Source: Mikrocytos mackini
Taxonomy: Eukaryota; Endomyxa; Ascetosporea; Mikrocytida; Mikrocytiidae
Length of the DNA: 45,222 nt
Assembly (NCBI GenBank): GCA_030180075.1
Contig: JASNJN010000008.1
Coordinates: forward strand, 1 to 45,222
Direction of reading: 5' to 3'
This document shows positions 649 through 45,222 of this stretch, piece by piece. The translations under genes and the position numbers were made by a program. The notes beneath the pieces are model-generated. The model was not told the DNA's origin and did no database searches. It saw only the letters and a list, made by a program, of their open reading frames with translations. Position 1 is the first letter of the stretch. Every line of letters starts with the position of its first letter.

Positions 649-1943
649 AATATAGTCATGTCCACTAAATTTGAATCACTATTTTATAGATGTAATTTTA
701 TATTTGAAATTTGAAAAATGTTTAGAATTTATTAATAAATTTAGTTTTATACGTAGAAATATTTTTTATTTAGTAAAAATTACTGTTTAAGTTTTTTTTC
801 ATTTTTTATGTATACAAAAATTGACTTCTGTTCATAAAAAATGAATCAACAAAAAAATTAAAATATAATTAACCATTTAAAAATTATGACACAAAAGTTA
901 CTTAACCCGTTCACCTCTTTTTGCAATGACATTTTCCAGACGCTCGTCAAGGCCATCAATAAGATTTTCGCAAAGTTCTGTTTCTAATGAATTCCAACAC
1001 TTATTGATTGCTATCCATAATTCTTGTATAGAACTATATACCTTCTTTGTTCTATACACTCTTCTAGTCATAATCCCCCAAAGATTCTCGATCGGATTAA
1101 GATCCGGCGAGTTTGGGGGCCATGTGAGAATATCGACCTTGTTACTTTTAAAAAACTCCTTAGAACTCTTGGCGGTGTGGCAGGTTGCGTTATCGTGCTG
1201 CCAAAAGAAGTTGTTTCTGTTAAATACCTTGTTTATGGCCGGCAAGACTTCATTCTTCATTAAATCTTGATATTTTTTCGCATTTAAAGTACCTTCTATC
1301 TTTGACAAAAAAATGGGTCCTGTACGGCAAAAAGCTCCGAAAATCATCAGTGATTTGTTCTGCTGATACTTTATAGATAAATACTTTTTGAATTTTCATC
1401 TCAGTGTTGACTTCCTGGTCTTTATGTTGCCAAACATTGAGCATTGAGTCCGGTCCTAACAGGTTAAACTTTTTCTCATCACTAAAAACAGTTATTTCGA
1501 ACAGTTTGGGTTGTAATATGTGATCGAAAGCAAAATCCATCCGTTTGCTCTTCTGTTTGGTGTTTAAACTTGGAATTAACTTTGTTCTTTTCTATAAATA
1601 CCCTTCTCTTTTCAAAAACCGCGAAACTGTTTGACGAGATACATGTAAATCAAGGTTATAAATTATTTCTTTTATAGTAGTCCCTCTGTGTTGTTTGATG
1701 TAACGTATTATACTTCTTCCTTTTCTTTCTGTAATCAAAAATTTTCGCCCTCGTTTGAATTTTATGTTGGGAATCTTTGTAGGTGCCAAAAGCCTGTAGA
1801 GTCTTGAATAAGGCATTCGCAAGGATTTTGCGGCCTTACGTATGCTTCCCGCATTGTGCACTTCATGGTCGAATAGTAAACGCTGTAGTAAGTGAGAATT
1901 TGACCTTGTAACTGCCATGAAAATTTTAATTTTTTAAAAATAT
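649..1943 (-). repeat. Left arm (1295 bp) of a head-to-head inverted duplication carrying a Tc1 copy
   Basis: The reverse complement of this segment matches 2049-3343 over its whole length with only scattered substitutions seen. The arms are the same length (1295 bp), separated by a unique 105-bp spacer (1944-2048). The inner boundary lies about 25 bp upstream of the transposase ATG. The outer boundary follows a tract of about 250 bp of AT-rich 3' sequence. No terminal inverted repeat pair was found at the arm ends, so the arms look like a duplicated segment rather than two complete transposons. Confidence 0.92.
898..1918 (-). pseudogene. Tc1-type (DD34E) transposase, broken copy 1
   Basis: This is a Tc1/mariner transposase reading leftward from the ATG at 1918. 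The N-terminal part has a homeodomain-like helix-turn-helix (segment ending at 1592). A TAG at 1592-1594 interrupts it where copy 2 has a tyrosine codon. The catalytic part continues at 1540-1250 with the first Asp (SDEKKF) and at 1347-898 with HDNATCHTA and the PDLNPIENLWG block. There are 34 residues between the second Asp and the Glu, as in the Tc1 family. A frameshift near 1370-1400 separates the last two parts and is shared with copy 2. The copy cannot encode a full enzyme as read. Confidence 0.95.
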
Positions 1944-2048: not shown

Positions 2049-3343
2049 ATATTTTTAAAAAATTAAAATTTTCATGGCAGTTACAAGGTCAAATTCTCAC
2101 TTACTACAGCGTTTACTATTCGACCATGAAGTGCACAATGCGGGAAGCATACGTAAGGCCGCAAAATCCTTGCGAATGCCTTATTCAAGACTCTACAGGC
2201 TTTTGGCACCTACAAAGATTCCCAACATAAAATTCAAACGAGGACGAAAATTTTTGATTACAAAAAGAAAAGGAAGAAGTATAATACGTTACATCAAACA
2301 ACACAGAGGGACTACTATAAAAGAAATAATTTATAACCTTGATTTACATGTATCTCGTCAAACAGTTTCGCGGTTTTTGAAAAGAGAAGGGTATTTATAC
2401 AAAAGAACAAAGTTAATTCCAAGTTTAAACACCAAACAGAAGAGCAAACGGATGGATTTTGCTTTCGATCACATATTACAACCCAAACTGTTCGAAATAA
2501 CTGTTTTTAGTGATGAGAAAAAGTTTAACTAGTTAGGACCGGACTCAATGCTCAATGTTTGGCAACATAAAGACCAGGAAGTCAACACTGAGATGAAAAT
2601 TCAAAAAGTATTTATCTATAAAGTATCAGCAGAACAAATCACTGATGATTTTCGGAGCTTTTTGCCGTACAGGACCCATTTTTTTGTCAAAGATAGAAGG
2701 TACTTTAAATGCGAAAAAATATCAAGATTTAATGAAGAATGAAGTCTTGCCGGCCATAAACAAGGCATTTAACAGAAACAACTTCTTTTGGCAGCACGAT
2801 AACGCAACCTGCCACACCGCCAAGAGTTCTAAGGAGTTTTTTAAAAGTAACAAGGTCGATATTCTCACATGCCCCCCAAACTCGCCGGATCTTAATCCGA
2901 TCGAGAATCTTTGGGGGATTATGACTAGAAGAGTGTATAGAACAAAGAAGGTATATAGTTCTATACAAGAATTATGGATAGCAATCAATAAGTGTTGGAA
3001 TTCATTAGAAACAGAACTTTGCGAAAATCTTATTGATGGCCTTGACGAGCGTCTGGAAAATGTCATTGCAAAAAGAGGTGAACGGGTTAAGTAACTTTTG
3101 TGTCATAATTTTTAAATGGTTAATTATATTTTAATTTTTTTGTTGATTCATTTTTTATGAACAGAAGTCAATTTTTATATACATAAAAAATGAAAAAAAA
3201 CTTAAACAGTAATTTTTACTAAATAAAAAATATTTCTACGTATAAAACTAAATTTATTAATAAATTCTAAACATTTTTCAAATTTCAAATATAAAATTAC
3301 ATCTATAAAATAGTGATTCAAATTTAGTGGACATGACTATATT
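2049..3343 (+). repeat. Right arm (1295 bp) of the Tc1-bearing inverted duplication
   Basis: Mirror image of 649-1943. Unique sequence resumes immediately outside both arms. Substitutions between arms are few, for example a Val/Ala and a Trp/Cys codon in the transposase, so the duplication is recent or kept alike by gene conversion. Confidence 0.92.
2074..3094 (+). pseudogene. Tc1-type (DD34E) transposase, broken copy 2
   Basis: The ATG at 2074 opens the same transposase as copy 1. This copy reads through the position where copy 1 stops but has its own TAG at 2530-2532, where copy 1 has a leucine codon, just after the first catalytic Asp block (SDEKKF). The frame then shifts once between about 2596 and 2620, a defect shared with copy 1. 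The last part (2645-3094) has HDNATCHTA and PDLNPIENLWG. The transposition reaction would be DNA cut-and-paste at TA targets, as known for the family, but this copy is dead as written. Confidence 0.95.
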
Positions 3344-3568: not shown

Positions 3569-4435
3569 TTAGTTAACTTTTGGCTTTGATCTTCTTCTTA
3601 CCTTATTTTTTTTCAATGCAATCAATATAACTACAACAGAAATCGCCACAATACCTCCCCCAAGCAAAAAGAACAAAAAGTACGGTCTGGGTGTGTTTTG
3701 TGAAATTATTGTTTGTTCTTCAAACTCAATTTTCAATGTTTTAACGACTTCATCAAACATTTCCTGAGTATACAAGTTAAACTTCTTCATTCGGTAGATT
3801 GGAGTTATAAGATCATCGGGATTCAAGTCTGAAAGTGAAGTCTTTTCGCCCTTTTCGTTTGGATTTATATTCACAGTTATCTGGAGATTTTCTTTAAGAA
3901 TTTCTGTACTGAACCCTTCAATTTCCTCGTTATTTTTGAACTGAACAAACTTTGAAGAAGAATCTGATAGATCCTTTATGACCTCGAATGATATGGTGTG
4001 CTGTATTGTTTCTGTAGATCTGTGCTGTGCTTCTTCGAATACCGTTTTAAAATCTTCACCGTTAAACTTTTTATTGTGGGCCATAGTCGATAAACACGCG
4101 GCTACATCGTGTGCTCCCATTTCTGTATCAAAGTCAACTCTAGAAAAGAAAATAAACGGTCTAGAGATGTTCAGTTCTAAATCCAGAGAATCTTTCTTGT
4201 TTCCAGATTTTGTTGTCACACTTAAATCGTCGGGCTTGCTGCCTATATAAGCACATGTTATAACAATATAACTCTTATCGCCCACGTCGTATCCTGAAAT
4301 CACCATTTCGGCGCTGAATGGAACTTTACTGTAATCTGTTGAAATTTGAAGTGGGTCGCAGTTCAATTTAAGCGTAACAACACAATATAAAACAATTGGA
4401 TAACAGAAGTTGTTAATAAATTTGTTTCTTGTCAT
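3569..4435 (-). CDS. Predicted type I membrane protein, unknown function
   Basis: This is a 288-residue protein starting at an ATG at 4435. Residues about 9-25 are hydrophobic and followed by polar sequence, consistent with a signal peptide. Residues about 249-272 form a strong transmembrane segment (FFLLGGGIVAISVVVILIAL), followed by a short basic tail rich in Lys and Arg. The roughly 220-residue segment in between is polar with beta-prone stretches and few cysteines, so it would be secreted-side. The arrangement suggests a single-pass surface or endomembrane protein. No family was recognised. It reads in the same direction as the helical gene at 4784-5587, 348 bp away. Confidence 0.75.
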   Translation of the reverse strand: MTRNKFINNFCYPIVLYCVVTLKLNCDPLQISTDYSKVPFSAEMVISGYDVGDKSYIVITCAYIGSKPDDLSVTTKSGNKKDSLDLELNISRPFIFFSRVDFDTEMGAHDVAACLSTMAHNKKFNGEDFKTVFEEAQHRSTETIQHTISFEVIKDLSDSSSKFVQFKNNEEIEGFSTEILKENLQITVNINPNEKGEKTSLSDLNPDDLITPIYRMKKFNLYTQEMFDEVVKTLKIEFEEQTIISQNTPRPYFLFFLLGGGIVAISVVVILIALKKNKVRRRSKPKVN

Positions 4436-8207: not shown

Positions 8208-9998
8208 TTATGCATCGCGCTGCAAACCAGCACGTCGCGGAATTGAATTGGGCCGCCCTCTATATCTTGTGTTTCCTATAGAATATAATAACCCAGTCAT
8301 TTTCAACTGTTTAGTGGCAACATAAAGTATGTGATCACATTTTCTTTGTATTCGATATTTTAAACAACCACAGAAGAAGCTTTCCCATCGTTTATCTCTA
8401 CTTGCATCATATACTACTATCTTCCTACTTAGAAATGCTTTATATTCGCGAAAAGAAACGAAATTAGAGCCTGTATATAATAGTTCTTTAGTTCTTTCGT
8501 CACTACACCGTTGTGTGTCATTTGAGTTCATTTCCTCGGCTAATAGGTAGTGAAATTGAGTCTGTACGTTACCAATTAAAGTGAAATCCATTTCAATCAC
8601 GTCTTTTGTAGAATAGAAAACATGATTGCTTCCCAAAAGTGAATGATAAATAGTATTGTTTGATTTGCTTTCTATCACTTTTCCCAATACATCAATTAAG
8701 GAAATTAGATGGTTCCGTCGATATGATGTATAATTTCGTTTTATGGCCGAGTTAAACCCCTCAATTGCGTTATTCGTGCTAGAACAAAAAAGATAGTAGC
8801 CTGTCCACCAATTGCAATTGTTATCTATGTAATTGTTTTTGAAGAATCTCAGAAACTCATCTAGAAAGGGGTATTCCTCATATTTCCTTAAAAAAACATT
8901 TACAGCTTTGTCGAAAATGGTTTTCGTTGGTGCTTTCTGAAGATAGTTTAAATCAGAATAACAGCGTCTCTTAATTTCTATATTTACATTTGGGATTTTT
9001 TTGTTTAAGTTCCTTGCCACGTGTGCCCAACATATGATGTGTTTAATACACTCAAAATTGATTCTCACTGCTGATTTAATAGAGGCAGCCCCGTCACTCA
9101 CAATTGCGTTTGGGGAAAACTGAATAACATTGTCATTACAGTAAGCTTTAAGTGTCGACAGAATAAAGTCATATGCGTTGGTTGTTTCTGAATTTGTCAA
9201 AGAAATGGAAACTAAACGAAATTTTCCTTCATGTGTGAGGCCTCCAACTATTATCACTACAAAAATTTGCCATGTAAGTTTATACGTGCCATCTAAACAC
9301 AAATTTTCGTAATTTTGTAATGAGTTAAGGAGACTATTAGTACTGTATATACTGTTGAATTTGTCACCTTCCAAATTACATCCTACACAAAAAAATCCTT
9401 TTTCTTCTTCTTTTAACGATCGTGAGTAAGCTAGTAATGAAGAGTTCGTAATCTGATGATCTTGTGGAGTTATCCTGTTAATTGTCCAATATCTGCGATA
9501 TACCTCTGGCTTAATATTGGACATAGTAGGGAATAATGTTGAAAGGCTTATCCACATAGCTTCAAATGATTGATATTGGCCTCCGGAGATCAAATCACGT
9601 AGTCGTGTTAGAAGTAAGGCTTTATCAAACCTATAAGAAACTTGGCACGTCTCCGAATGTTGATTTCTTATCATAATACTAAAAAAAGAATTTCGAAAAT
9701 TTCTTTTTAAAGAAAATCCAAACGTGCACATTCTGTTTGTTCTATCACAGTTATAGGTAATGTTGTGGATATTAACTCCAACTCTATCATTCTTCAATGA
9801 AAGTATGTCTTTTAAAAACATAAGCAACCAGTTGGCTTCAGCAGAATCAATTTTCATATTATCAGTAGTGTCAGACAAACTATGAAGAAAACTAGGTTGA
9901 ACAATGATGTTACGAAAATCTTGATAAAAATCAATTGTGTTTGTGGTTTCTGCGGATTTTCCAAGGTGTGGTTCTAGTATTCTTGAAACTATTTCCAT
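8208..9998 (-). CDS. MULE (Mutator-like) transposase with SWIM zinc finger
   Basis: The ATG at 9998 gives about 596 residues (an upstream TTG adds four). The RNase H-like core has catalytic Asp at about 236 (LDGTYKLTWQ), Asp at about 302 (IVSDGAAS), the CWAH pair at about 323-326 that is usual in MULEs, and Glu at about 413 (NNAIEGFNSAI). A SWIM finger of form CxC-x8-CxH follows at about 543-556 (CGC, then CDH). The C terminus is basic. The reading frame is complete, so it could encode an active cut-and-paste DNA transposase. No long terminal inverted repeats were found by eye around it, so the element boundaries are undefined. A tandem repeat lies just upstream (10154-10250). Confidence 0.93.
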   Translation of the reverse strand: MEIVSRILEPHLGKSAETTNTIDFYQDFRNIIVQPSFLHSLSDTTDNMKIDSAEANWLLMFLKDILSLKNDRVGVNIHNITYNCDRTNRMCTFGFSLKRNFRNSFFSIMIRNQHSETCQVSYRFDKALLLTRLRDLISGGQYQSFEAMWISLSTLFPTMSNIKPEVYRRYWTINRITPQDHQITNSSLLAYSRSLKEEEKGFFCVGCNLEGDKFNSIYSTNSLLNSLQNYENLCLDGTYKLTWQIFVVIIVGGLTHEGKFRLVSISLTNSETTNAYDFILSTLKAYCNDNVIQFSPNAIVSDGAASIKSAVRINFECIKHIICWAHVARNLNKKIPNVNIEIKRRCYSDLNYLQKAPTKTIFDKAVNVFLRKYEEYPFLDEFLRFFKNNYIDNNCNWWTGYYLFCSSTNNAIEGFNSAIKRNYTSYRRNHLISLIDVLGKVIESKSNNTIYHSLLGSNHVFYSTKDVIEMDFTLIGNVQTQFHYLLAEEMNSNDTQRCSDERTKELLYTGSNFVSFREYKAFLSRKIVVYDASRDKRWESFFCGCLKYRIQRKCDHILYVATKQLKMTGLLYSIGNTRYRGRPNSIPRRAGLQRDA

Positions 9999-10153
9999 TA
10001 TTTTAAACAATCGGTTTAATCACAAACTTTTCTTAATAAATAATATATAAAATGATACAATTAAAAACACAGAATTATCTATTTCTGCAAATAATGAATG
10101 TAAAATACGTGAAACTACGTCTTATAATTTTTTTTCAAATTTAAAATTAAAAA

Positions 10154-12563: not shown

Positions 12564-13028
12564 TTACTTCTTGCTTTCATTGAACGTCTTTATACTCTTG
12601 CTGATTTCTCCCGTCGCGTGTCTGGCCAATTCTCCGGGCAATATCAGTTGTGCTGCAAGTTGTATTTCTGTGGCAGAGATGGTCTTCTTCCCCGTCTTGA
12701 AACTCATCCCACTCGCTACCTTTATTATCTTGGCAAGTATATCATCGACAAAACTGTTCAGTATCAACATTGCCTTCCTACTAACTCCTATTTCTGTGTG
12801 TATGGACCTCAATAACTTGTAGATATAAGTGGCGAAACTTTCCGTCCTTTTCTTTTTCCTTTTTTGTGGAATTTTGATTGGAGCTGCCACATCACTGGAC
12901 ATCTTAGCTCCTTGGCCTATTTTGGATATCCCCGGGCGCATTTCAACCTGTGGAGTAGGCTTTATGTCTTTGGGGTGTGTAATAGGAGGGTTTTCTTCGT
13001 GGTGTGGTTGTTCTGATTTTCCTGTCAT
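12564..13028 (-). CDS. H2B: Histone H2B, copy 1
   Basis: A 154-residue H2B. The basic stretch at about 56-61 leads into the histone fold: TESFATYIYKLLRSIH (alpha 1), GVSRKAMLILNSFVDDIL (alpha 2), the KKTISATEIQ and LILPGELARHA blocks (L2, alpha 3 and alpha C), close to canonical H2B. The N-terminal tail is unusually long and Pro-rich, with Lys spread through it. It dimerises with H2A in nucleosomes. Its start is only 49 bp from the divergent gene at 13078. The protein is identical to copy 2 at 14670-15134. Confidence 0.96.
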   Translation of the reverse strand: MTGKSEQPHHEENPPITHPKDIKPTPQVEMRPGISKIGQGAKMSSDVAAPIKIPQKRKKKRTESFATYIYKLLRSIHTEIGVSRKAMLILNSFVDDILAKIIKVASGMSFKTGKKTISATEIQLAAQLILPGELARHATGEISKSIKTFNESKK

Positions 13029-14669: not shown

Positions 14670-15134
14670 ATGACAGGAAAATCAGAACAACCACACCACG
14701 AAGAAAACCCTCCTATTACACACCCCAAAGACATAAAGCCTACTCCACAGGTTGAAATGCGCCCGGGGATATCCAAAATAGGCCAAGGAGCTAAGATGTC
14801 CAGTGATGTGGCAGCTCCAATCAAAATTCCACAAAAAAGGAAAAAGAAAAGGACGGAAAGTTTCGCCACTTATATCTACAAGTTATTGAGGTCCATACAC
14901 ACAGAAATAGGAGTTAGTAGGAAGGCAATGTTGATACTGAACAGTTTTGTCGATGATATACTTGCCAAGATAATAAAGGTAGCGAGTGGGATGAGTTTCA
15001 AGACGGGGAAGAAGACCATCTCTGCCACAGAAATACAACTTGCAGCACAACTGATATTGCCCGGAGAATTGGCCAGACACGCGACGGGAGAAATCAGCAA
15101 GAGTATAAAGACGTTCAATGAAAGCAAGAAGTAA
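14670..15134 (+). CDS. H2B: Histone H2B, copy 2
   Basis: Encodes exactly the same 154-residue protein as copy 1 (12564-13028), with the same histone fold and the same unusually long Pro-rich tail. The identity extends through the untranslated flanks to both arm ends. Together the two copies flank the hypothetical gene and uS3, so each H2B is divergent from a different neighbour. This gives a potential double dose of H2B and two different promoter contexts. Confidence 0.96.
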   Translation: MTGKSEQPHHEENPPITHPKDIKPTPQVEMRPGISKIGQGAKMSSDVAAPIKIPQKRKKKRTESFATYIYKLLRSIHTEIGVSRKAMLILNSFVDDILAKIIKVASGMSFKTGKKTISATEIQLAAQLILPGELARHATGEISKSIKTFNESKK

Positions 15135-23685: not shown

Positions 23686-25746
23686 TTAATGAAGACAACA
23701 CACGTAGTTCTGGGTTTTGTCTTTTACCTTTCCTTTCGACTTCAAACAGGTAAAATGATACCATTTCTCGCAAAGAAGACATCCTATCCAATCTAAAGAA
23801 GCAGCACTAAATTGGTCTTCTACAAAATAACATTCATGACAAAGTAGAAAAGTCTTTATTATTTCTTTGACTTTTGGCCCTCTTTTCTTGGCAAACTTTG
23901 TAAACTTTCCCTTATAGTCGTTCAGATCTCTTTGTTTAACAGTGACTTTTTGAGGATTGACTTCAAAAGATGATGGTGTTACAACAAATTCTTTACTTGG
24001 ATTCAAAGAAAGCAATTCGATGCATTCATCTACTTTTAATTGAATTTCTTTTGAGTTTGATAAGATAGATGACTCCTCCCTTATTGCTTCTAACTTCGCT
24101 GTTAGACTTGATACTGCTTTTGTAATAGTTGAAGAAGTTTCCGGAACAATACTTGACTCAGCCTTTGAAGGAACATTTGAGCTATTGTCTTCAAGTGATC
24201 TTTCCGAATCTTGTACCTGTTTGTGGACCTTATAGTAGAAATTCTTAAAGGAGTCAAAGAATCTTTTCTTGAACAGGTGAATAAAGAAATGATTCGCGAT
24301 AGCATGAATATGCTTGCAAATTTGTTTGGTTTTTAAAAAATTCAAACAATTGCATGTAAATTCATCAAAATGCAAAAAGCAATCAGGACATATAACTTTT
24401 GATTTGTCATAAGTATTATATTGCTTTATAAGTTTTATTTCATAATTTTTGCATTTGTAATCTGTAGTATTAATTTTTTTAAGTTCTTCTTTTTTGACTT
24501 CATTTATTTTTTTGTGGTTTTCTATATATTTTCTTACTCTATAACTATAGTTTGTAATTTTTTTTGATTCATTTTTTATTAAACTTTGGTTAACTATTAC
24601 TTCTATCATTGTTGTTAATATATTAAATAAATTGTCGAGTCTATTATTGGTTTTTCTTTTGAGATATTTATATTTCATTGTTTTAAAAAAGCTTTCCGAG
24701 TAATTATTTGTATTAAACCAACAATTTAGGCGGTATGGAAGACCCCAATTTTCAAATTTTGTTGAGTAATATGTTTTGAAATAGTGGTAAAATGTTGGTT
24801 CAATTTGTTCTATTGTAATAATAAGTGAATTCATTATTTTTTTAAATTCTTCGACATCAGTAGTTATTGATAAGTTATCTAAATATTCTATTATTAATTT
24901 TTTGTTAGTTTTATTCTTTATAAATTTGTTAATATTACGTTTCCAGCACTTTTTAACATGGAATTCGCAAAATATGTTCTTAGATTCGTGTTTAAAAGTT
25001 CTTTCCCAGGAATTATAGAAGCCTGAGTACATGTCTGAAACAACGTACGGCACTTTTTTCTCTTTGTTTATATGAATTTTTAAGTTTTGAAATACAAAAG
25101 TCAAAATATCTTCTCTTTCGCTTGAAGTAATTATAAAAATGAATGGGAAAAGTTCGAAAATGTCGGAAACAACAAACCCTACAGTTAGTGGATATTTGTA
25201 AATGTTTGTTCCGTGTGTAGAATCTATTAATATGCCTTTTTTATAAAAAGTTTCGTATTTTTCTAGTAAATTTTCTGTTGTAAAAGCGAATACTATTTCT
25301 TCATTTTTTTTATTGTACTTTGAAATATTGGTATCATATTCTTTAAAACAAATTTTTATAATTTCTTCATTTTCAATGTATTTATTTATCATCATTGTAA
25401 AGCTTATGTAATCGATTTTGTTAAGTTGCATTGTTCTTTCTACAAGTTGGCTTAAGTAATTTAAATAGTTCATGGTTAATGTTTGTGATTTCTTTATAAC
25501 TTTATCCTTTACAGATTTAACTAAATCAATATAAATCTTTGAAGTCGAAGTTCCATTTTGTATTTGTTTAAGAATATCTATTTTAATAACATCGGGTAGC
25601 TTTATTTGATCCCAATTAGGGGGATGAATATGAGAAAGATTGCTATTAATTTTAACGGAAGTGTTGGAAATATTATGAATAGTAATAAAGGCATAGCAAG
25701 GTTTTGTATTATTCTGTGTAAAGTTACATTTAAAATACTCAACCAA
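23686..25746 (-). pseudogene. MULE transposase with FLYWCH-like N terminus and PHD-like C terminus, no ATG
   Basis: An uninterrupted frame of 686 codons begins at a TTG at 25746. It stays open upstream only to a stop near 25780, with no ATG, so the 5' end is probably truncated or shifted. In order: a FLYWCH/WRKY-GCM1-like finger (Cys7, Cys17, His39, His41); an RNase H-like core with Asp175 (LIDSTHGT), Asp238 (VSDMYSG), the CEFH pair (260-263) and Glu351; a SWIM finger (Cys465, Cys467, Cys477, His479); a Ser-rich linker; and a PHD-like finger (Cys636, Cys639, Cys656, Cys659, His664, Cys667, Cys683, His686). The PHD finger would be a histone-tail or chromatin reader. All catalytic residues are present. 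Confidence 0.85.
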
Positions 25747-28577: not shown

Positions 28578-30889
28578 CAGGGTTGGGTTTTACCCATGGA
28601 TAATACGTTTTGGACAGGACACATGGATGAATCCGGTTTTAGACAAAACGATAAATTATATTATCCGTTTAAAATTATAAATATATTTTATAAATTATAA
28701 TTTATTTTTTCACTTTTTAGTTTCACAAAATATTTCAAAATTGTTTTTCAAAAAATCAAAAGTTTGGAAAATATATTTTATGCACAATATAAAACCTTTA
28801 TATTAACATTAGTAAGACTTTTCTTTTTAAATTTATATTATTATTTAAATTTCCTTTTGTTAATCTAATTAATTTCGTTTCTCATTCAACAAAGCATAAC
28901 AAAAAAGAAGTTTTCTTAATTTTTCCGTTGCCAATTTATTCCTCGTTTTGTTCTGAATATAAGAGCAATTGCTAAAAATTCGTTCAATTGATGCTGTCGT
29001 AGGATTTAGACTCAATAGCATAACAATATGATCAACAAAATCCTCGTTGATTCCATGAAATTTCAAGGCTTTCCACCAAGTTATGGGCTCTATTTTAATT
29101 GTAGGATCGTTGAAAAATTGTGTAGGGTAGGGTCTTTCACGTGCCTGTAAACGTAGCAACTCATTTACATACAACTCGTTAATATTTCCCAAGTAAGATT
29201 GCACCTTATATAGTTCATCATGGTCCAAGTTAATTCCCAGATATTTAGGATGAAACATATAGGTAACATAATGAGTATCAAATAACATTTGTTCTTTACG
29301 CTTTTGTAAAATCTCTTTGTGACGTGAACTCCAGGTGTAGCTTATTCCTTCAATTTTTTCATGAAATAAACAACGTCAGCAAGAGAAGCCTTGTTTGATT
29401 GCAACGCAATTATTGCTTCATAAATCGGTTCGAGCTTCGATAGTTCTGTTCGTACATTATTATGTAACTGGGTATTGAATATAGTGTCTTTTATGGCGCT
29501 GTCTTCGATTATTCCTTCTGTTTGAGTGGCGGTCATATAATGCTTTAAATTAGAAAGGAAATTTCCCAATGAAAGATATACAGAAGACCACCGTGTTGAA
29601 GCAGGAAGAATTGGTTTAAGTGCGTCTTTAATTGTACTTAGATATCCACATGCTTTGTGACAATATTTAAAATGTTTTTGAACTTTATTAACTTGTTCAA
29701 CTATTCTTTCGTTTGCCACATCTTTTGCTAATAGATTGAGTAAGTGAGATGCGCATCCAATTGTAACAATGCCAGGGTTGTTTTCGGATACCAATGTTCG
29801 CATTCTGTTCATTACGGCCGCGTTGTCTGTACACAGACCTATTATCCTCGTTTTAAAATCATCTGTTAGGACATTAATCGAAGTTTGTGCAAGTTGAGAC
29901 AAATATTCTGCATTTTTTATCTGTATTCCTGGAGTAAATAGATCAATTATGTAAGATTTTCCATCAACTAAAATTGAATTGGCCACAATGGATTCATTGC
30001 GTACATTTGTCCATCCATCTTGCATCAATGTTAGAGGCTTAAACTTTATCTTCTCCCTAAATTCTGCTAAAAGACTATTATAGACGGTGTTAAGTAGGTT
30101 GTTTGATAAGTATTGACGCGATGGGAGCTTATAGCCGGGTGCCATGCTAGTTATAAATGTCTTAAAATGCGTGTTCTCGACCTGTCTAAACGGCGCATTG
30201 GTTGAAATAATGTAATTTGTGAGAAGAATATCGTATTTGTCTTTTAAATTCTTGGTTTTGATAACCAACGAGGAGAGTAATTTTGGCTGCTCGAAGGGGG
30301 TTACATTATTATGTTCGCTTGTATCTTCGAGTTTATTATCGTCTAAAGGTTTAAGTAATAGGTTCTCTTTCTTCTTTGTGCATGTTAAAGCGTGCTTCTT
30401 CATTCTGTCTGCCTTAGGTGCACGAATCTTATTACAAGCATTACATTTAACCTTTTTAACACCATTGTCAAATACTTCAGTGGATTCAGACCACACGGAA
30501 TCGCGTGGTCGGCCTCCAGCTTGGTTGTTCATAAAAATTAATTTAAGTTTCAAAGTTTTTTGGCTCGTAAACGCGGTGGTTGATTCAAACAATAATACAG
30601 TAGACAAGTGTTGTTCAAATAAACCAAACCCTGGGTTTATATGAATATCCAAACATTCAAGTTGAAAATAACGATTTTTAATTATCCATATCAATTTATA
30701 GGGTGTTTGTACAAACATTATGGTTCTGACAATCCTATTGAATCATAGATAGAAACATACTCCCAAAACTTTAAACCAAGGTTTTGGACATTTTTAATTT
30801 TATTATGGCAAAAAGGTTTTATCCTGGACGGTTTATACCGGATTAAACCACCCTGGATTATACCGGCTGGTATAATCCTCCCAACTCTG
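28578..30889. mobile_element. hAT transposon, 2312 bp, with perfect 8-bp target duplication
   Basis: GCTATATA at 28570-28577 is repeated exactly at 30890-30897, the 8-bp target duplication of hAT insertion. The ends are CAGGGTTGGG and, inverted at the right, CAGAGTTGGG. The transposase lies on the minus strand inside. Both ends, the target duplication and the gene are thus all visible, and the exact duplication indicates a fairly recent insertion. Confidence 0.93.
28869..30532 (-). pseudogene. hAT transposase split by one frameshift
   Basis: The first part starts at the ATG at 30532 (MNNQAGGRPR; an upstream ATG at 30718 lacks family sequence). A BED zinc finger has Cys30, Cys33, His47 and Cys51. 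The RNase H-like part follows with LMQDGWTN, LCTDNAAVM, CASHLLNLLAKDV and ASTRWSSVYLSL. This frame stops at 29342 soon after KKLKE. A second frame, open from about that point, carries the C-terminal hAT dimerisation region: TWWKALK, ERIFSNCSYIQNKTRNKL and LRKLLFCYALLN (ATG at 29288). One frameshift near 29340-29350 is enough to explain the split. If the frameshift is real rather than a sequencing error, the copy is inactive. Confidence 0.92.
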
Positions 30890-33421: not shown

Positions 33422-36400
33422 ATGTTAACTGAAGATAGCAGAAAATCTCTTTCTGGGAAGAATACAACAACAAAAACCGCTAAAAGCGGCCGATCATTTA
33501 GATTGATTAAATTTGGTCTCTATTTCTTTCTGTTTATATTCATTGGATATTTGGTTGTGCTATTTTTGGCACTCAATGATGTGAACGACCAAACCAGAAG
33601 TATAGCAGCATATGACAGAATACAAAGGAGCAAAAAAAATTCCAAGCTAGTAATAAGCGGTGAAAATCTTCACGAATCCTCCAAGTACGATCCAGACCAC
33701 ACAAAAGTGGACCGTACCAACAAACAAATAAAAGACTCCTTTGGTTCGAACGAAATCAGAATAGACAATACTCCAGCTGTAGGAGTTACTGATGACGGAG
33801 TCAAGATTGGCTCCGCTAAAACAGAGTTTTTAGGAGAAAGTGTGGATATGGACGGGGATCTCTCATACAACAAAGAAGGGGCAAACATGCAACTTAATAT
33901 GAAGAATGCAGATGGCACCCTTCTTTCTCAGACTGTTGCTAAGAAGAATCCTGGCCACGATCTGGGTAGTCTCGAAGACGACCAGGGGGTTTATAGCTCG
34001 TCTGTTTCGTTTTCATCACAGTCCGGTCTGCATGCGAACTCAGAGGTTGAACCATACAACAACAAGGCATTGGCTAGCCTGTTCGAGATTGACGCATCGG
34101 CCGATAAAGACGAAGAATACGTTCCTAATACAGTTTGCAACACAAAAGAAAATGTCGCACTCTATAAGAACTTTAAAGCCAAACTTAAAGGCGAAATACA
34201 GAACAACAAACTTCCAAAGCTTGAAATACTTAACATACCAGACATATGTATCGGAAACTCTTCATTCAAACATAATAGCATAGAAATCGAACTCGTGCCC
34301 GGTTCGACTAGCAAGTACATCTATACATTCAAGACAACCGCAGTACTCAAAGGGTTGACCACAGAATTTCCTGAAGCGGGGGTCAAAATGAGCGGACACT
34401 TGGAAACTTCAAAGAAAGCTACCATACAATTAACAGGGCCTTTGAAAAAATTCAACTTCGGTACCGACAACAAAGTTAACGATTTCATCAAGTTAAAAAA
34501 CTGCTCTTTAAACTTAATTATATCCCCGGCCAAGACAGAACAATTTAGCGGATCGGTGAACTGTGATATACAGAACCTTTATATGTTCGAAGGAGGAGAC
34601 AACATAAACGTTGGGCACAATCAAGCTACAGTTGACATCCAAGACCTTCTTGTGGATAATCATAGAAACTATGTGACGATAAAAACAGATGGTAGTTTCA
34701 ACATAGAAGAGAAACTCATGCTTAGGAATGTCAACCTAAGGCTTATAACTATGAATGCGAAAACAACAGCTCTTATTCAAGGCAAGGTTGAGTTCAACTT
34801 GGGCCATAGCAATGCTTGGCTTTTAAAATGCCAAGGCATAGGAAGATCAAATGGCGCTGCTTCTTTCATAATAGATTCAGATTGCAGCTCTCTTCAATGG
34901 GCTGAAATTGGCACTCACCTAGAAAATATAATTCTCAACTATACCAAAGGACGAGGAGCACAATTAATAGCTGATTTAAGAGTGTTCGGGAGAGAGTTGA
35001 AAATAGATCAACAAATCAAAGACGTGAGGCATTTTAAGATCGAAATTCCATTCGATTTCAATTCGTTAAAACAGATATTTAACAGTCCCAGCGCAAAGAA
35101 CAACCTATTAAAAGAATTCATTGGACTACAAGCAGTAAAGAAGGAACTGTTGAATATAAAGTCAGGATACCTGGATTTTTCTAAACCAGTCCCAGCACTT
35201 ACATTCCCATTACTCGGTGTTTTACAAAAGAAAAAGTTAGAAATGAATAATGTCAAACTGCTATATTTAGGTTACAAAAAAGAAGACATAATAAACATGC
35301 GATTTTTGCTGAAAGATGTTAGCCTAAACGACTTTCTAATTTCGACTGAAGATAACACACTAAACTCTTTAGGCGCGAAGAAAATCAGATATTACAATGA
35401 GAGATTTAATTCCATAAACGTTACAATCGGGAATTTCATTTCTAGCCGGGTTGAAGGCTACACCACAGAAGATCAAGCCAACTTCAAAACAAACGGTGCA
35501 AGGTTTACCATCAATTCAGAGTTTTACAAATTGCTTGGTTCTAAAACAGGGTTTACCAAGTTAGATTCCCTCATTGTAAAAAACAGAATAATTGCTGACT
35601 TTACCAATAACAAACTTTTAAACGATTTGATTTTAGAAGAAGATATAAACATTGGGGATTTCATCAGTCTTAGCGAAGTGCAGTTCGAAATCACCGATGG
35701 AAAGATAACCATTAAAAAAGCAATAATCGACGTTAAAAAAGACGAAACGAATCTAAACCTAAATATGCTGGATAGTAAAACAACATCCGTTGAATTGAGT
35801 GACAATAAAATAGTGTTGAACATACCTGAAGCTATAGATACAGGTAGTAACAGTATATCAAATGTTAAACTAACAATACAAAACGAGGGAGGTAAACATA
35901 CATATACATTGGAAGGTCTCAAAACATTCACATCAAAAAACACGCGAAATTCAGTCCCTTTCAAAATAACATACCCCAGTGCCACGGGGATCGGTTATTC
36001 TGCATTTGTTGCCAATGAAGATACGGAAAGCGAAGACTTCAAAAAGCTATGCCCAGCCGCAATGAACCTCAATAAAGAAGTTCATCTGGGGAAACTCACA
36101 ATAAAAATAGAATACTTCCAACTGTCGACGGGTTGTGTTTCCATTTTGGCAAACTTGAGCCTATTCGGGAAGAACTATGAACTCAGGTTACAAAAAACTA
36201 AAATTAGTGCTGAAGAAAAAGAATCGTCATACTTAATCCTAAAAGGCTCTCTTTATGCAGAGAACTCTATATTCACTAAACCACTCAATATAGAGCTCAA
36301 CCTTCCGGTTAACCACGAAACGAAGGAGATAGGTTCTCCAATTGAACTCATAAAGATTAAATTAGAAGCTGAATTGAACTTATTCGGAGGAACTATAACA

Positions 36401-39400
36401 GCGCATATTGACAATCTAACCGATTCGACAAAACAGTGTGAGATTCGAGTTCACAACTTACCCATAAAAGGTGGATTTTTACTAATAAAAGATATAATAA
36501 TACAGTATAACCAAGAACATGAAGCTTTTTCTGCCGATGTGAATATATCTTTAAAAGACCATTTTGATGCCACATTATCGGGAAACTTCAAAACCCAAAA
36601 CAAGTCATGGGATTTAGAAGGATATGTGAAGAATCCGCTTCCAAACTTACCTAAAACAGAGACGGACCTTTTCAAATTGGTTGTTAAAAGTGATCCATTG
36701 TTTATCGCACTTGAAAGTAATTTTGACTTTAAGGGTTTCAAAGCACATGGGATGTTGGTATATGATCAATCAAAGGGAAGTTTCGATGTCAGTTTCCCAG
36801 TAATACAACTTGGGCCATACGTTAGGTTGAGTCAATTAAAAATGAACAACAAAACACCAGGTGAGGAAATTTATCAAGGTCAGTTGTCATTAGGCGAGTG
36901 CTCGGACGACAAATCTTCACCATTTTGCTTGAACTCTATGGGAGTTTCTGTAAAGAAAACCAAAGCAGAGCTTTCGGTAGACACAATGCTTGAAAGTCTA
37001 TCTATTAACACACCTTTCGGTTTAGAAATAGAAATGAGAGAGATTATTGTTCAAGTTAAGAAATATTTGGAAAAGAGTCCAGATAAACTAGAGAAGGACA
37101 GCACTATGTTACTCAATTTTGAGGATGCAAACGATGTCAAAGAACATAAAGATTACGATGTTCATCTGTCTGGGACAGGTGCAGTGAAGTTAAAGGGCGG
37201 CAAAGAATTTTTGTTGCAGACTAAATTAGAATTACACGATGATATGGTGCTCGAGTTCTCTGCATCAAACACAACACTGGCTTTAGTTGAATTGCTACAA
37301 GCATTGGGAGTTCCTGGCCTAGACAAACTTGGAAAATACCTCAACAGTCATGCGTCACAGTTCACAATAAAGATTACAAAGACAGGCGGGGTATTTGAGG
37401 CACTGGTAAAAGGGTCAGAAACCCTATCGAAGGAGAACCACCTATACATCTACTTCAACCATACAACAGAGAAATATGTGATTTCTTATGTAAAAACAAC
37501 ACCCACCGCTCTGTCGGAACTGTTCCCAGTAAACTCTAACTTCACAATACAAAACCTCAAACTGCAAGCAACTAATTGTGCAGCTACGAACAATTGTTCT
37601 GGTAACAAGGAAACTAATGAAGAAATTAACAAACTTCAAATCTTAGAAAACAATAAACTTATTCTGGAAGGCGAGGCTTCGTTCAGTTCGTTCTCTTCAC
37701 ACGCACAGGATATTCAGCCTGTTTTGAACCTCGGCGCCAAGCCGATATCAACAGTTAAAATTAGTACCAAAATAGATTTAATAAAGCCTTCAGACAACAC
37801 AATCTTAAAAGCAGAACTGGAGAATATAAAAATAGGAAACTCAGTTGATTTGAGTTTGAGTCTTGATTTAGAAGTGAAAGACAAGGAGTTACTTATACAT
37901 TCAAATTCTTCAATCATAATTGCGAAGAATAAATACCTAGAAGCTGCAGTAATCAACATGGAGTTCACAAGCGATTCGGATAAGGTGTTATTCTTTGTAA
38001 AAGGAGGCTCGCCAAACTCTAAGAGCGAAGCTTCGTCAAGAGATGTTGTGATCAAATACAACGACGTTTCTTTGTTGAAATTGGAAGATATAGACATAAA
38101 GCTTCAATTTAATAAAAACTCAAGCAAACTTGAGCAATCCCATTTCTACGGTACTATAAAGCTTCTTAAAATAAACAAAGAAATCAAAGCAACAATAGAG
38201 TTATTCAAGCCTGAAGAAGTGGGAGGCAGCGACGATTCGGGAAAAGTGAGCGAGATGACCATCGATCTCGACGTATCAAACCTCACTGTAGAAGACACCA
38301 TCAAATCGTTCGGAGATGACTCATCCATGCCCGATATAAAAATATTAGACAACAAACTAACGGAAAAGGGAGATATGAAGAAGGCACTTCGTAATGCAGT
38401 AGGGTCGGTGCAAATAAAGGTGCGCACAAAACCCGAAACATACGTTTTAATAGACATTAAATCCAGTAAGATTAACGCAAGTGGTGTAGTTATAAACTTC
38501 GACTTCGTGTTAGTTGTAGAGAATTTGGAGGGAAGCAAGAATGTGACTGTTATGTTCAAAATCAACGGAAAATCGAATTTGGTAGATTTACAAACTGTAA
38601 AAGCTAAGAATGAAAAACTTAAGAATATGACCATGTTCAAAGGGCTATTCCTTTTGTCATATTACTCAGACATCAAATCCATAAAGAAACTGTCACACAA
38701 ACTAGATACAGGAAACATTATAGAAGAGAACTGTAATTTTGATTTCTATAAGAAACAGACATCCTCTTCTTTGCCTTCGTTGAGTGAAACGGACGGCTCT
38801 TTATTTATTTGTTTCGACGCGGAAGTAGACAAGATTACAGATGCATTCGACTTCGACATTGACGTCGTGTTTGTCGGATATCTTAGTAAGAAACAAGTAG
38901 TAATATCCGGTGCATTAAACTACGTAAAGTACATAAACAAAAAGAGGGGCATAGATATTAAAATCGAGAATGCCAATTTGTTGATTGAAAAAACATTCAG
39001 TAGGAATGGAATCGTAATAAAAGCGGGCATTGAAGGAAGCGTGAAATTCGCAAATGGAAAGCAGTTTGTAGACTTTACAGGGTACATTGATTTAGAGGAC
39101 AAGAGTTTGCTTACTGAAATAGAAGTGAACGGAAGTCTGAACGTAATCGGCGACTTCTATCTGAATAACGCTAGACTTTACGTAACATTACGCCAAGAAG
39201 ATAAAAACGACTATATTAGGTTAGAGGGGATGACGGAAATAAGGGCACTTCCCAGTAGCTTCGCTCCGGTTAGTAAGGTGGCCACTGTGAAGAAGGGTTA
39301 CTTTGACATATTGCTTTACTTAGACCTAAATCAAATGAGATCGAGCATAACAGACATTAAAGAAGTAGGCGTGTTGTTGTTCTTAAAAGCAGAAAACTTC

Positions 39401-40942
39401 AACTTCGGGAGCCTTCTTCCAAAAGGAGATAGCCTTATAAGGACATATGTTCATCGTGCTCTATCAAAGATAGAAATAGGCAAGGTTTCGTTCATATTAA
39501 ACACACTGCCGGAAGTTGACCACGATGGAGATCCTGACTTCGATCCATTTGAAGACGAAGACGGAGAAGACAAGGCAACTAAAGACTACGGGCTAGTGAC
39601 AGAAAGAAACTTTAAAAAACTAGATTCTTTGGTGGTCAAGAGTGAGATATCCAAATTCCCTAAAGGAATAACATTTAATCTTGAAGACATTCGTTTTTTC
39701 AACTTCAGAGGATTAGCGAGGTTCAGACACCACAACGAGCTAGTAGAGGTGTATTGTGTAGTTTACCCACTGGAGATCAAACTAGGGAAACTACCAATTC
39801 TCACCATCAGAGGGTTAAACGAAAAGTTCCCCAATTTTGAAGTTGTACTCAAAAGAAATAAAGGCGTCTCGTTTGTACGTGTTAAAGGAGGCGTCTTTGT
39901 GTTTGGCGTTATTGGCGGGGCTGGGACAATAATAAGAGACGACGTAAAGGAGAATGGTGTTTGGAACATAGAAGGAGAGATTAAACTATTGGTCACTTAC
40001 CAGCTGACAATGAAGATTACCGGGGACAATTTACTAAAACCCAAGAAAATCGGAATGAGGATGTTTGCCGGACCAGCCTCTTTTTCTCAGGTGTTCGTCG
40101 ACATAGAAGAAAAGATCAACACAGGACAGGCGGATCTCGAAAAGAGCCTGAATAGTTCTCTCAGTCTTGAAACGATTGAAAATGCCTATATGGAAAGATT
40201 AAAGACACTCTATAAAGAAAAAGATGAGAGAATTATGGAAATATACAAAAAACAAAAGATCACAGATCAGGATCTTCAAGACTACATCAAGATTAATTTG
40301 GACATAGACGAAGACCAGCACAAAGAAGACATCCTCGATAAAGAACTTGATATAATGGAGAAGAAGAAAGAGGACGATGAGGATATGTTCAAATCTGTCG
40401 AGGCGAAGATAGGAGAAATGAAAAAACAGATAACCGAAAATCAACAGAAAATTAAAACTAGATGGTCTTGGTGCAAGAGATTCAGATTGAAGACCAAATC
40501 CATCTTTAAGTTCGACATAAAGAAAACTTTCGACGCGAAAGTAATTGAACTTAATCTCAGAATAGCGGCTGCCTGGGTTAAGTACATTCTGAAGAAGATA
40601 GGGCACTACACAATGAAGTATCTCGGGAAACCTCTACTTATATTGGCAAAGTGGATAGTGAGGGCACTTTCACTCGGCCAGGCCATTCTATCTGTCCAGT
40701 CTATGGAAGCGTTAGTTGAGGACGTGGACGCAAATAAAGAGATACAGGTTGCTAAGGTGACCCTCGTAACAGTAGTAGGACCCGATGAAATCAAAGTACA
40801 TCAAGAAATGAATGTAGGACACTTGACTTCGTATTGGACTCTTGTATCAACCCTGATAGTGCTAATAATAAAAGTGGTGATACAACTAGGAAAAGACTTA
40901 TTCAAAGTATTCAAAAAATTCGCAGCATTAGTCGGCGGATGA
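33422..40942 (+). CDS. Giant (2506 aa) membrane-anchored, beta-repeat-rich protein, unknown family
   Basis: One uninterrupted frame. Residues 1-30 are basic and hydroxyl-rich, followed by a transmembrane anchor at about 31-52 (LYFFLFIFIGYLVVLFLAL). Positive charge before the anchor suggests the N terminus is cytosolic and the rest lumenal or extracellular (type II). Residues about 240-2200 are long alternating polar/hydrophobic strands in repeated blocks with shared cadence, for example IGDFISLSEVQFEI, LGPYVRLSQLKM and IGNSVDLSLSLDL, with about 18 N-x-S/T sequons and few Cys. An acidic patch lies near 2033. A Lys/Glu-rich probable coiled coil spans about 2236-2343, then a hydrophobic helical segment and a second membrane segment at about 2471-2488. 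Extended beta-strand arrays of this kind resemble AsmA/TamB or bridge-like lipid-transfer proteins in general shape, but no family signature was recognised. The gene is the longest and least AT-rich in the window. Confidence 0.95.
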   Translation: MLTEDSRKSLSGKNTTTKTAKSGRSFRLIKFGLYFFLFIFIGYLVVLFLALNDVNDQTRSIAAYDRIQRSKKNSKLVISGENLHESSKYDPDHTKVDRTNKQIKDSFGSNEIRIDNTPAVGVTDDGVKIGSAKTEFLGESVDMDGDLSYNKEGANMQLNMKNADGTLLSQTVAKKNPGHDLGSLEDDQGVYSSSVSFSSQSGLHANSEVEPYNNKALASLFEIDASADKDEEYVPNTVCNTKENVALYKNFKAKLKGEIQNNKLPKLEILNIPDICIGNSSFKHNSIEIELVPGSTSKYIYTFKTTAVLKGLTTEFPEAGVKMSGHLETSKKATIQLTGPLKKFNFGTDNKVNDFIKLKNCSLNLIISPAKTEQFSGSVNCDIQNLYMFEGGDNINVGHNQATVDIQDLLVDNHRNYVTIKTDGSFNIEEKLMLRNVNLRLITMNAKTTALIQGKVEFNLGHSNAWLLKCQGIGRSNGAASFIIDSDCSSLQWAEIGTHLENIILNYTKGRGAQLIADLRVFGRELKIDQQIKDVRHFKIEIPFDFNSLKQIFNSPSAKNNLLKEFIGLQAVKKELLNIKSGYLDFSKPVPALTFPLLGVLQKKKLEMNNVKLLYLGYKKEDIINMRFLLKDVSLNDFLISTEDNTLNSLGAKKIRYYNERFNSINVTIGNFISSRVEGYTTEDQANFKTNGARFTINSEFYKLLGSKTGFTKLDSLIVKNRIIADFTNNKLLNDLILEEDINIGDFISLSEVQFEITDGKITIKKAIIDVKKDETNLNLNMLDSKTTSVELSDNKIVLNIPEAIDTGSNSISNVKLTIQNEGGKHTYTLEGLKTFTSKNTRNSVPFKITYPSATGIGYSAFVANEDTESEDFKKLCPAAMNLNKEVHLGKLTIKIEYFQLSTGCVSILANLSLFGKNYELRLQKTKISAEEKESSYLILKGSLYAENSIFTKPLNIELNLPVNHETKEIGSPIELIKIKLEAELNLFGGTITAHIDNLTDSTKQCEIRVHNLPIKGGFLLIKDIIIQYNQEHEAFSADVNISLKDHFDATLSGNFKTQNKSWDLEGYVKNPLPNLPKTETDLFKLVVKSDPLFIALESNFDFKGFKAHGMLVYDQSKGSFDVSFPVIQLGPYVRLSQLKMNNKTPGEEIYQGQLSLGECSDDKSSPFCLNSMGVSVKKTKAELSVDTMLESLSINTPFGLEIEMREIIVQVKKYLEKSPDKLEKDSTMLLNFEDANDVKEHKDYDVHLSGTGAVKLKGGKEFLLQTKLELHDDMVLEFSASNTTLALVELLQALGVPGLDKLGKYLNSHASQFTIKITKTGGVFEALVKGSETLSKENHLYIYFNHTTEKYVISYVKTTPTALSELFPVNSNFTIQNLKLQATNCAATNNCSGNKETNEEINKLQILENNKLILEGEASFSSFSSHAQDIQPVLNLGAKPISTVKISTKIDLIKPSDNTILKAELENIKIGNSVDLSLSLDLEVKDKELLIHSNSSIIIAKNKYLEAAVINMEFTSDSDKVLFFVKGGSPNSKSEASSRDVVIKYNDVSLLKLEDIDIKLQFNKNSSKLEQSHFYGTIKLLKINKEIKATIELFKPEEVGGSDDSGKVSEMTIDLDVSNLTVEDTIKSFGDDSSMPDIKILDNKLTEKGDMKKALRNAVGSVQIKVRTKPETYVLIDIKSSKINASGVVINFDFVLVVENLEGSKNVTVMFKINGKSNLVDLQTVKAKNEKLKNMTMFKGLFLLSYYSDIKSIKKLSHKLDTGNIIEENCNFDFYKKQTSSSLPSLSETDGSLFICFDAEVDKITDAFDFDIDVVFVGYLSKKQVVISGALNYVKYINKKRGIDIKIENANLLIEKTFSRNGIVIKAGIEGSVKFANGKQFVDFTGYIDLEDKSLLTEIEVNGSLNVIGDFYLNNARLYVTLRQEDKNDYIRLEGMTEIRALPSSFAPVSKVATVKKGYFDILLYLDLNQMRSSITDIKEVGVLLFLKAENFNFGSLLPKGDSLIRTYVHRALSKIEIGKVSFILNTLPEVDHDGDPDFDPFEDEDGEDKATKDYGLVTERNFKKLDSLVVKSEISKFPKGITFNLEDIRFFNFRGLARFRHHNELVEVYCVVYPLEIKLGKLPILTIRGLNEKFPNFEVVLKRNKGVSFVRVKGGVFVFGVIGGAGTIIRDDVKENGVWNIEGEIKLLVTYQLTMKITGDNLLKPKKIGMRMFAGPASFSQVFVDIEEKINTGQADLEKSLNSSLSLETIENAYMERLKTLYKEKDERIMEIYKKQKITDQDLQDYIKINLDIDEDQHKEDILDKELDIMEKKKEDDEDMFKSVEAKIGEMKKQITENQQKIKTRWSWCKRFRLKTKSIFKFDIKKTFDAKVIELNLRIAAAWVKYILKKIGHYTMKYLGKPLLILAKWIVRALSLGQAILSVQSMEALVEDVDANKEIQVAKVTLVTVVGPDEIKVHQEMNVGHLTSYWTLVSTLIVLIIKVVIQLGKDLFKVFKKFAALVGG

Positions 40943-44895: not shown

Positions 44896-45138
44896 CTATT
44901 TTTTCAGGCCCGGGCTAGCATCTTCTATCGTGCTATTATTCTCCTCGAGTTCTCTGTTTATTTGGTTACTGCACTTCGTTGGTGCGTATTTAGACTCCGG
45001 CTTTATATATGCCTGGGATTTTGCAAAACTTCTTGTCACTGGCCTTCTAGGTACGAATGGCACGTGTTTACCTGTTCTTCTCGTAGGAGTGATTTCTTCA
45101 ACTTCCTCTTCGGAGATGTGGTAACAGGAGTTTGTCAT
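44896..45138 (-). other. Arg/Pro-rich open frame at the edge, possibly part of the retrotransposon remnant
   Basis: An 80-codon frame starting inside the first unit of the 19-bp tandem array. It is rich in Glu, Arg and Pro and has no recognised domain. It abuts the integrase fragment in a different frame, so it may be the same decayed element after a frameshift. Confidence 0.3.
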
Positions 45139-45222
45139 GTGTACAGGAGTTTGTCATGTGTACAGCAGTTTGTCATGTGTACAGCAGTTTGTCATGTGTA
45201 CAGCAGTTTGTCATGTGTACAG
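45125..45222. repeat. 19-bp tandem array running off the window
   Basis: Five copies of CAGCAGTTTGTCATGTGTA (first two with GGAG instead of GCAG) start at 45125, 45144, 45163, 45182 and 45201, with a sixth beginning at 45220. The array continues beyond the edge, which may be where assembly stopped. Confidence 0.97.

What the first reader, a model, noticed from the sequence alone, without database searches (positions are those of the whole stretch)
33422..40942. Uncharacterised 2506-residue membrane-anchored beta-array protein
A single long frame encodes an N-terminal membrane anchor, roughly 1900 residues of repeating amphipathic strands with many sequons, a Lys/Glu coiled coil and a C-terminal membrane segment. 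In a reduced genome with short genes, keeping such a giant intact amid transposon debris implies a strong role. The shape resembles AsmA/TamB or bridge-like lipid-transfer proteins, but the predicted topology puts the array in the lumen or outside the cell, unlike Vps13/Csf1-type bridges. It could be a lumenal lipid conduit, a spore or surface scaffold, or a new fold.
Basis: partly seen in the sequence, partly recalled or inferred. Interest (0 to 1): 0.78.

Follow-up and report, generated by a model that had tools for sequence, protein, structure and literature searches.

The report
Orphan giant anchored beta-sheet protein pair
A tiny oyster parasite carries two intact genes for giant, membrane-anchored, sheet-rich proteins that look built for the outside of the cell or the space inside its secretory system, and no known relative or function could be found for them with the tools at hand.

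Summary
The frame is real and intact: 33422-40942(+), 2506 aa. The window's assembly contains a contig of 76,988 bp, the maximum contig length printed for Mikrocytos mackini, an intracellular oyster parasite (PMC10245619). The held genome has a second intact full-length copy (P0002, 2383 aa, 27% identical). No significant match was found in Pfam, NCBIfam, PDB, one large protein set, or viral and prokaryotic contigs. Strand periodicity over 200-2220 is strong (z 8.8; Vps13 control 3.2). Not upheld: P0001's sequons are at chance (22 against 23.6), the C-terminal membrane segment is not conserved, and no sequence repeat was found. A lipid groove could not be tested: both models have mean pLDDT below 38. 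Best reading: a signal-anchored extracytoplasmic beta-array acting as a long tether or scaffold; a lipid conduit is a live, unproven rival.

The parts
33422..40942 (+). P0001, 2506-aa giant protein gene, single open frame
   Evidence: intact paralogue of 2383 aa, 27% identical over 2331 aligned positions
33422..33517 (+). residues 1-32, basic N-terminal segment (net +6), probably cytosolic
   Evidence: orientation inferred
33518..33574 (+). residues 33-51, signal-anchor type hydrophobic segment
   Evidence: Kyte-Doolittle 2.79; conserved in P0002 (20-38, 2.73)
34019..40081 (+). residues 200-2220, beta-array region
   Evidence: 170-degree moment z 8.8, 100-degree z -3.0; hydropathy at non-identical aligned positions correlates between paralogues (r 0.496; highest of 1000 shuffles 0.092)
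34136..34249 (+). conserved cysteine pair C239/C276
34502..34564 (+). conserved cysteine pair C361/C381
34829..34885 (+). conserved cysteine pair C470/C488
36050..36136 (+). conserved cysteine pair C877/C905
36899..36928 (+). conserved cysteine pair C1160/C1169 (spacing 9, in P0002 13)
37577..37597 (+). conserved cysteine pair C1386/C1392 (spacing 6, in P0002 4)
38732..38812 (+). conserved cysteine pair C1771/C1797
39755..39757 (+). conserved cysteine C2112 without a near partner
40085..40714 (+). residues 2222-2431, predicted helical, Lys/Glu-rich stretch
   Evidence: helices in a low-confidence model (mean pLDDT 37.5); helix moment z 1.5 in P0001 and 3.1 in P0002
40754..40813 (+). residues 2445-2464, predicted beta-hairpin
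   Evidence: low-confidence model
40832..40933 (+). residues 2471-2504, C-terminal hydrophobic or amphipathic helix
   Evidence: low-confidence model; hydropathy 2.06 in P0001, 1.42 in P0002

Best explanation
P0001 and its paralogue are a pair of giant secretory-pathway proteins of Mikrocytos mackini. Shown by sequence: one N-terminal hydrophobic anchor, about 2000 residues of strand-rich sequence, seven conserved close cysteine pairs, and a conserved C-terminal part that is predicted helical. Inferred: the protein enters the ER as a signal-anchored (type II) protein; the array folds outside the cytosol, held by short-range disulfides between neighbouring strands; the C-terminal helices and the terminal amphipathic helix contact a partner or a second membrane. 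Most likely it works as a long surface or lumenal tether and scaffold at the parasite boundary, the two copies serving related but diverged contacts. I rate location and class (extracytoplasmic anchored beta-array) at about 0.75 and the tether or scaffold role at about 0.5.
For: Two intact full-length copies at 27% identity. 15 of P0001's 17 cysteines (15 of 16 in P0002) are shared; chance of 15 or more at 27.2% conservation 2.5e-7, and 0.012 even if each cysteine had a 60% chance of being kept. Fourteen of the 15 form seven pairs with spacings of 6-37; 12 of 50,000 random placements are as tight. Pair spacing changes between paralogues while both partners are kept, as for loops closed by a disulfide. 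Charge bias at the P0001 anchor. ERO1 present, E 3.7e-40. Strand periodicity and its conservation between paralogues. PMC11069148, section 10: proteins with signal peptides are enriched in Ascetosporea-specific gene clusters without function (939 of 7004 against 102 of 6909 in shared clusters).
Against: No experimental datum. The paralogue's anchor shows no clear charge bias (+4 before, +3 after). Disulfides are inferred from conservation only; C2112 has no near partner; Vps13, cytosolic, has a similar cysteine density (6.5 against 6.8 per 1000), and its conservation could not be compared. Mikrocytids lie in host cytosol (recalled), which is reducing, so a surface-exposed array would meet reducing conditions. 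Models have mean pLDDT 32.7 and 37.5, so no fold is shown.
Confidence: 0.5

Rival explanations
1. Extracytoplasmic lipid conduit that works like AsmA/TamB/YhdP: anchored in one membrane, its array forms a long hydrophobic groove that carries lipids to a second membrane, either inside the secretory system or between parasite and host membranes.
For: Same layout as AsmA-type proteins (N-terminal anchor, extracytoplasmic strand array, membrane-facing C-terminus, and passages of PMC11014939). Alternating hydrophobic pattern with conserved hydropathy. Mikrocytids lie close to host mitochondria (PMC10245619 section 8; PMC9998036 passage).
Against: No Pfam match to any family at E 10 for P0001, which would include AsmA or TamB models if they were in reach. 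Groove not testable: pLDDT 32.7. Alternation also fits sandwiches and solenoids. Disulfide-rich arrays are not a stated feature of the family.
Confidence: 0.25
2. Diverged cytosolic bridge-like lipid transfer protein of the Csf1/BLTP1 or Fmp27/BLTP2 type, anchored in the ER with the array in the cytosol.
For: N-terminal anchor plus long strand-rich array and similar length. BLTP1_N found no other gene in the held genome, but that search rang in no control, so it does not show absence; the search with PF10344 did not complete.
Against: Charge bias of P0001 and conserved cysteine pairs point away from the cytosol. No Pfam match. The genome's Vps13 is a separate 3100-aa gene with a clear match and shows no similarity to this protein (hhalign E 0.26, BLASTP best E 1.1).
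Confidence: 0.07
3. Divergent member of a broad eukaryotic family of giant beta-array proteins with a coiled coil, a beta-hairpin and a final amphipathic helix, which I recalled from animal genomes; the function of that family is unknown to me.
For: A recalled C-terminal sequence found 26 real relatives at 43-58% identity, so that family exists. The order of elements at the C-terminus is alike. Segment 330-449 of P0001/P0002 aligns to that module with E 2.3e-4 for one comparison; 0 of 300 column shuffles reach the score.
Against: The expected C-terminal match is not significant: E 0.13 and 0.2, 10th of 43 windows, 9 of 200 shuffles as good. The 330-449 match is in the wrong part of the protein, is one of 43 windows, and a reversed template scores 23.5 against 28.4 in the same place.
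Confidence: 0.15

Closest known systems
AsmA superfamily (AsmA, TamB, YhdP) of diderm bacteria
   Same: N-terminal membrane anchor, long strand-rich extracytoplasmic region, large size
   Different: No profile match; eukaryote; seven conserved cysteine pairs; predicted helical C-terminal part; no groove shown
Repeating beta-groove / bridge-like lipid transfer proteins (Vps13, ATG2, BLTP1, BLTP2)
   Same: Giant length, strand-rich array; BLTP1 and BLTP2 also carry an N-terminal anchor (recalled)
   Different: Array probably not cytosolic; no chorein or other Pfam match; distinct from the genome's own Vps13
Giant eukaryotic beta-array family represented by P0003-P0028 (recalled from animal genomes, unnamed)
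   Same: Order of coiled or helical stretch, hairpin, terminal helix; one local profile match of 41 columns
   Different: C-terminal module itself not significantly matched; lacks the Cys-rich knot seen in P0003-P0027

Membership tests
AsmA/TamB superfamily | Match to an AsmA, AsmA_2 or TamB sequence profile | tested here: not met
   Pfam scan of P0001: 0 families at E up to 10; P0002 only MPI_cupin_dom 0.29 and DUF7908 0.42
AsmA/TamB superfamily | N-terminal membrane anchor with extracytoplasmic array | tested here: inconclusive
   Anchor clear in both copies; charge bias in P0001 only; cysteine pairs favour extracytoplasmic
AsmA/TamB superfamily | Continuous hydrophobic groove along the beta-structured domain | tested here: inconclusive
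   Single-sequence model of 860-1400 has mean pLDDT 32.7; no fold search made for that reason
Repeating beta-groove (BLTP) proteins | Head-to-tail modules of five antiparallel strands plus a crossing loop (PMC9719229 passage) | tested here: inconclusive
   No sequence repeat; model too poor
Repeating beta-groove (BLTP) proteins | Chorein or other BLTP sequence profile | tested here: not met
   no similarity to own Vps13
Repeating beta-groove (BLTP) proteins | Array in the cytosol at membrane contact sites | tested here: inconclusive
   Conserved cysteine pairs and P0001 charge bias speak against; P0002 charge pattern is neutral on it
Recalled giant eukaryotic beta-array family (P0003-P0028) | C-terminal hairpin plus helix module | tested here: inconclusive

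The most novel reading that the evidence does not exclude
A eukaryotic, disulfide-stapled lipid bridge that stands outside the cytosol: anchored in the parasite's membrane, with a groove that takes lipids from a second membrane, possibly one of the host (mikrocytids lie close to host mitochondria and lack a clear ATP importer). It would be an AsmA-like device invented or reinvented in a eukaryotic parasite.
Probability: 0.1. Interest if true: 0.9.

Novelty: new variant of a known kind. Interest (0 to 1): 0.5.

Why it matters
Mikrocytids have lost much metabolism and no clear ATP importer was found in them (PMC10245619, section 8), so proteins at the parasite boundary are where answers are expected. 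A pair of giant, intact, conserved, extracytoplasmic proteins without known relatives is a concrete candidate for that boundary. If the array proves to be a groove, it would be a bridge-like lipid carrier outside the cytosol in a eukaryote, a kind I do not know of (recalled; the one search on it, listed 8 of 148 papers and none of those 8 contained the bridge-like term).

Tried and rejected
Sequence relatives: full-length search scored 7987 candidates, none at E 0.01 or better; C-terminal part 2060-2506, 6228 candidates, none at E 1 or better. These searches need shared exact 5-residue words, and at 27% identity even the paralogue would share few, so absence is weak evidence. Viral and prokaryotic contigs: 166 and 121 pattern matches, none confirmed; only two short peptide patterns were used each time. 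PDB: none. NCBIfam: only RNaseP1Mthb at E 1.5 for P0002.

Organism: microsporidian first guess rejected. RF02542 gave no match, TLC transporter no match, though that search rang in no control, and ribosomal protein hits gave no microsporidian affinity. Contig length settled it.

Sequons as evidence of a lumenal place: rejected for P0001 (chance level); left open for P0002 (excess of 2.7 SD). STT3 gave no match, but the held assembly is 13.6 Mb of a published 49.7 Mbp, so absence of the enzyme is not shown.

Membership in the recalled giant family: not supported at the C-terminus; local match at 330-449 kept as a lead only.

Fold search: not run, because both models are below the confidence at which it means anything.

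Polyubiquitin as a Rhizaria marker: two weak ubiquitin-like matches, not informative.

Full report
What was checked. The window holds one open frame of 2506 codons at 33422-40942(+). It is by far the longest of the 46 frames of 80 or more residues listed (the next has 686). Its codon third positions (GC 0.41) resemble four cellular genes of the window (uS3 0.50, uL5 0.47, kinase 0.42, the 442-aa gene 0.44) and not the two MULE transposases (0.30, 0.25).

Where it comes from. The window is contig C7 of a held assembly of 13.6 Mb in 733 contigs. The 48 contigs whose length I saw (of 733) are all at least 10,135 bp, so the held copy is probably the subset above 10 kb of a larger assembly. Contig C27 is 76,988 bp. 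PMC10245619, Table 1 (section 5 read) gives 76,988 bp as the maximum contig length of the Mikrocytos mackini assembly (49.7 Mbp, 16,018 contigs, GC 33.6%); the other mikrocytid, Paramikrocytos canceri, has a maximum of 40,223, shorter than this window. Intron-poor genes, many transposons and the absence of a nucleotide transporter in that paper (passages and section 8) agree with what the window shows. M. mackini is in Rhizaria, Endomyxa, Ascetosporea.

A family of two. The held genome has a second intact frame of 2383 codons on C40 (P0002), 27.2% identical over 2331 aligned positions, with the anchor and the C-terminal part in place. Three other contigs carry short pieces of P0002: C568 (97% and 77% identical, the second with two stops), C452 (95%, and 81% on the other strand) and C41 (92%, one stop). 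So the old pair is intact while recent partial copies decay. At aligned positions that differ, hydropathy still correlates (r 0.511 over the whole length; highest of 1000 shuffles 0.084), which fits selection on a fold.

Topology. The anchor of P0001 (33-51) has +5 before and -1 after within 15 residues, favouring a cytosolic N-terminus; in P0002 it is +4 and +3, which favours neither. The stronger evidence is cysteine. P0001 has 17, P0002 has 16, and 15 are shared. At the average 27.2% conservation 15 or more of 17 has probability 2.5e-7; if cysteines are simply a well-kept residue (60%), it is 0.012. Fourteen of the 15 fall into seven disjoint pairs with spacings 37, 20, 18, 28, 9, 6 and 26; 12 of 50,000 random placements are as tight. 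In two pairs the spacing differs between paralogues (9 against 13; 6 against 4) while both partners stay. I read these as disulfides, and hence as an array that folds in the ER lumen or outside the cell. ERO1, the enzyme of oxidative folding, is present (E 3.7e-40). Sequons do not help: P0001 has 22 (23.6 expected); P0002 has 50 (35.9 +/- 5.3 expected), an excess; two columns are shared. STT3 had no match, but only about a quarter of the published assembly is held.

Fold. Strand-type periodicity over 200-2220 has z 8.8 in P0001 and 6.6 over 190-2095 in P0002, helix-type about -3; Vps13 of the same genome, a known strand array, has 3.2, and six other controls lie between -1.1 and 1.6. It is uneven along the chain (250-residue windows 0.7 to 4.2 in P0001), and a stricter measure, alternating runs, is only 2 SD above shuffles, no better than a transposase control. 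No internal sequence repeat was found (105 window pairs, best P 0.011). AlphaFold2 without an alignment gave strands of about 8-11 residues in 860-1400 but at mean pLDDT 32.7, and for 2018-2506 helices, a hairpin and a last helix at 37.5. I take only the secondary-structure hint from these and did no fold search.

Relations. No family: Pfam 0 for P0001 at E 10, chance-level names for P0002; NCBIfam likewise; PDB none; the protein set none; viral and prokaryotic contigs none. The genome's Vps13 is a separate 3100-aa gene with no similarity to this one. I recalled a family of giant animal proteins with a similar C-terminal order of elements. A typed recollection found 26 real relatives, but the profile test at the C-terminus failed (E 0.13 and 0.2; 10th of 43 windows, 9 of 200 shuffles as good). 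One 41-column match at 330-449 (E 2.3e-4, 0 of 300 shuffles) is a lead, weakened by the wrong place, 43 windows tried, and a reversed template scoring 23.5 against 28.4.

How it most likely works. Shown: gene, paralogue, anchor, strand periodicity, cysteine pairs. Inferred: secretory route, lumenal or surface array, disulfides, contact of the C-terminal helices with a partner or membrane. The commitment is an anchored extracytoplasmic tether or scaffold (0.5). An AsmA-like lipid conduit (0.25) is compatible with the layout but its defining groove could not be tested. A cytosolic BLTP-type bridge (0.07) is disfavoured by the cysteines. In the passages and sections that I saw of the mikrocytid papers (PMC10245619, PMC11069148, PMC9998036) no such protein is described; 'surface' and 'glycosylation' do not occur in the main text of PMC10245619 and 'VPS13' and 'glycosylation' not in that of PMC11069148. 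Searches for print on it listed only part of their hits, so this is not proof of absence.

Verdict. Real, conserved and without known relatives.

Noticed in passing
12564-13028(-) and 14670-15134(+): Two inverted copies of a 154-codon gene with identical translations (H2B-like by recalled motif) flank a 155-aa frame and uS3.
   Followed up: no
L014:83-676 (G000:C657): A fragment like the C-terminal part of EF-1alpha (below the family cut-off, 26.1 bits) ends next to a MULE-like frame; possibly host sequence carried by a transposon.
   Followed up: no
898-1347(-), 2074-3094(+), 8208-10010(-), 23686-25746(-), 28869-30718(-): Transposon remnants: DDE_3 (IS630/Tc1-like), two MULE transposases, hAT-like pieces.
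   Followed up: partly
3569-4435(-): 288-aa orphan with a hydrophobic N-terminus and a C-terminal hydrophobic segment followed by basic residues, like a type I membrane protein; no Pfam match.
   Followed up: no
L019:4973-6067(-) (G000:C40, downstream of P0002): 364-aa TM2 plus DnaJ domain protein, DNAJC22-like (recalled name).
   Followed up: no
45124-45222: Tandem array of a 19-base unit (5.2 copies, 98% matches) at the very end of the contig.
   Followed up: no
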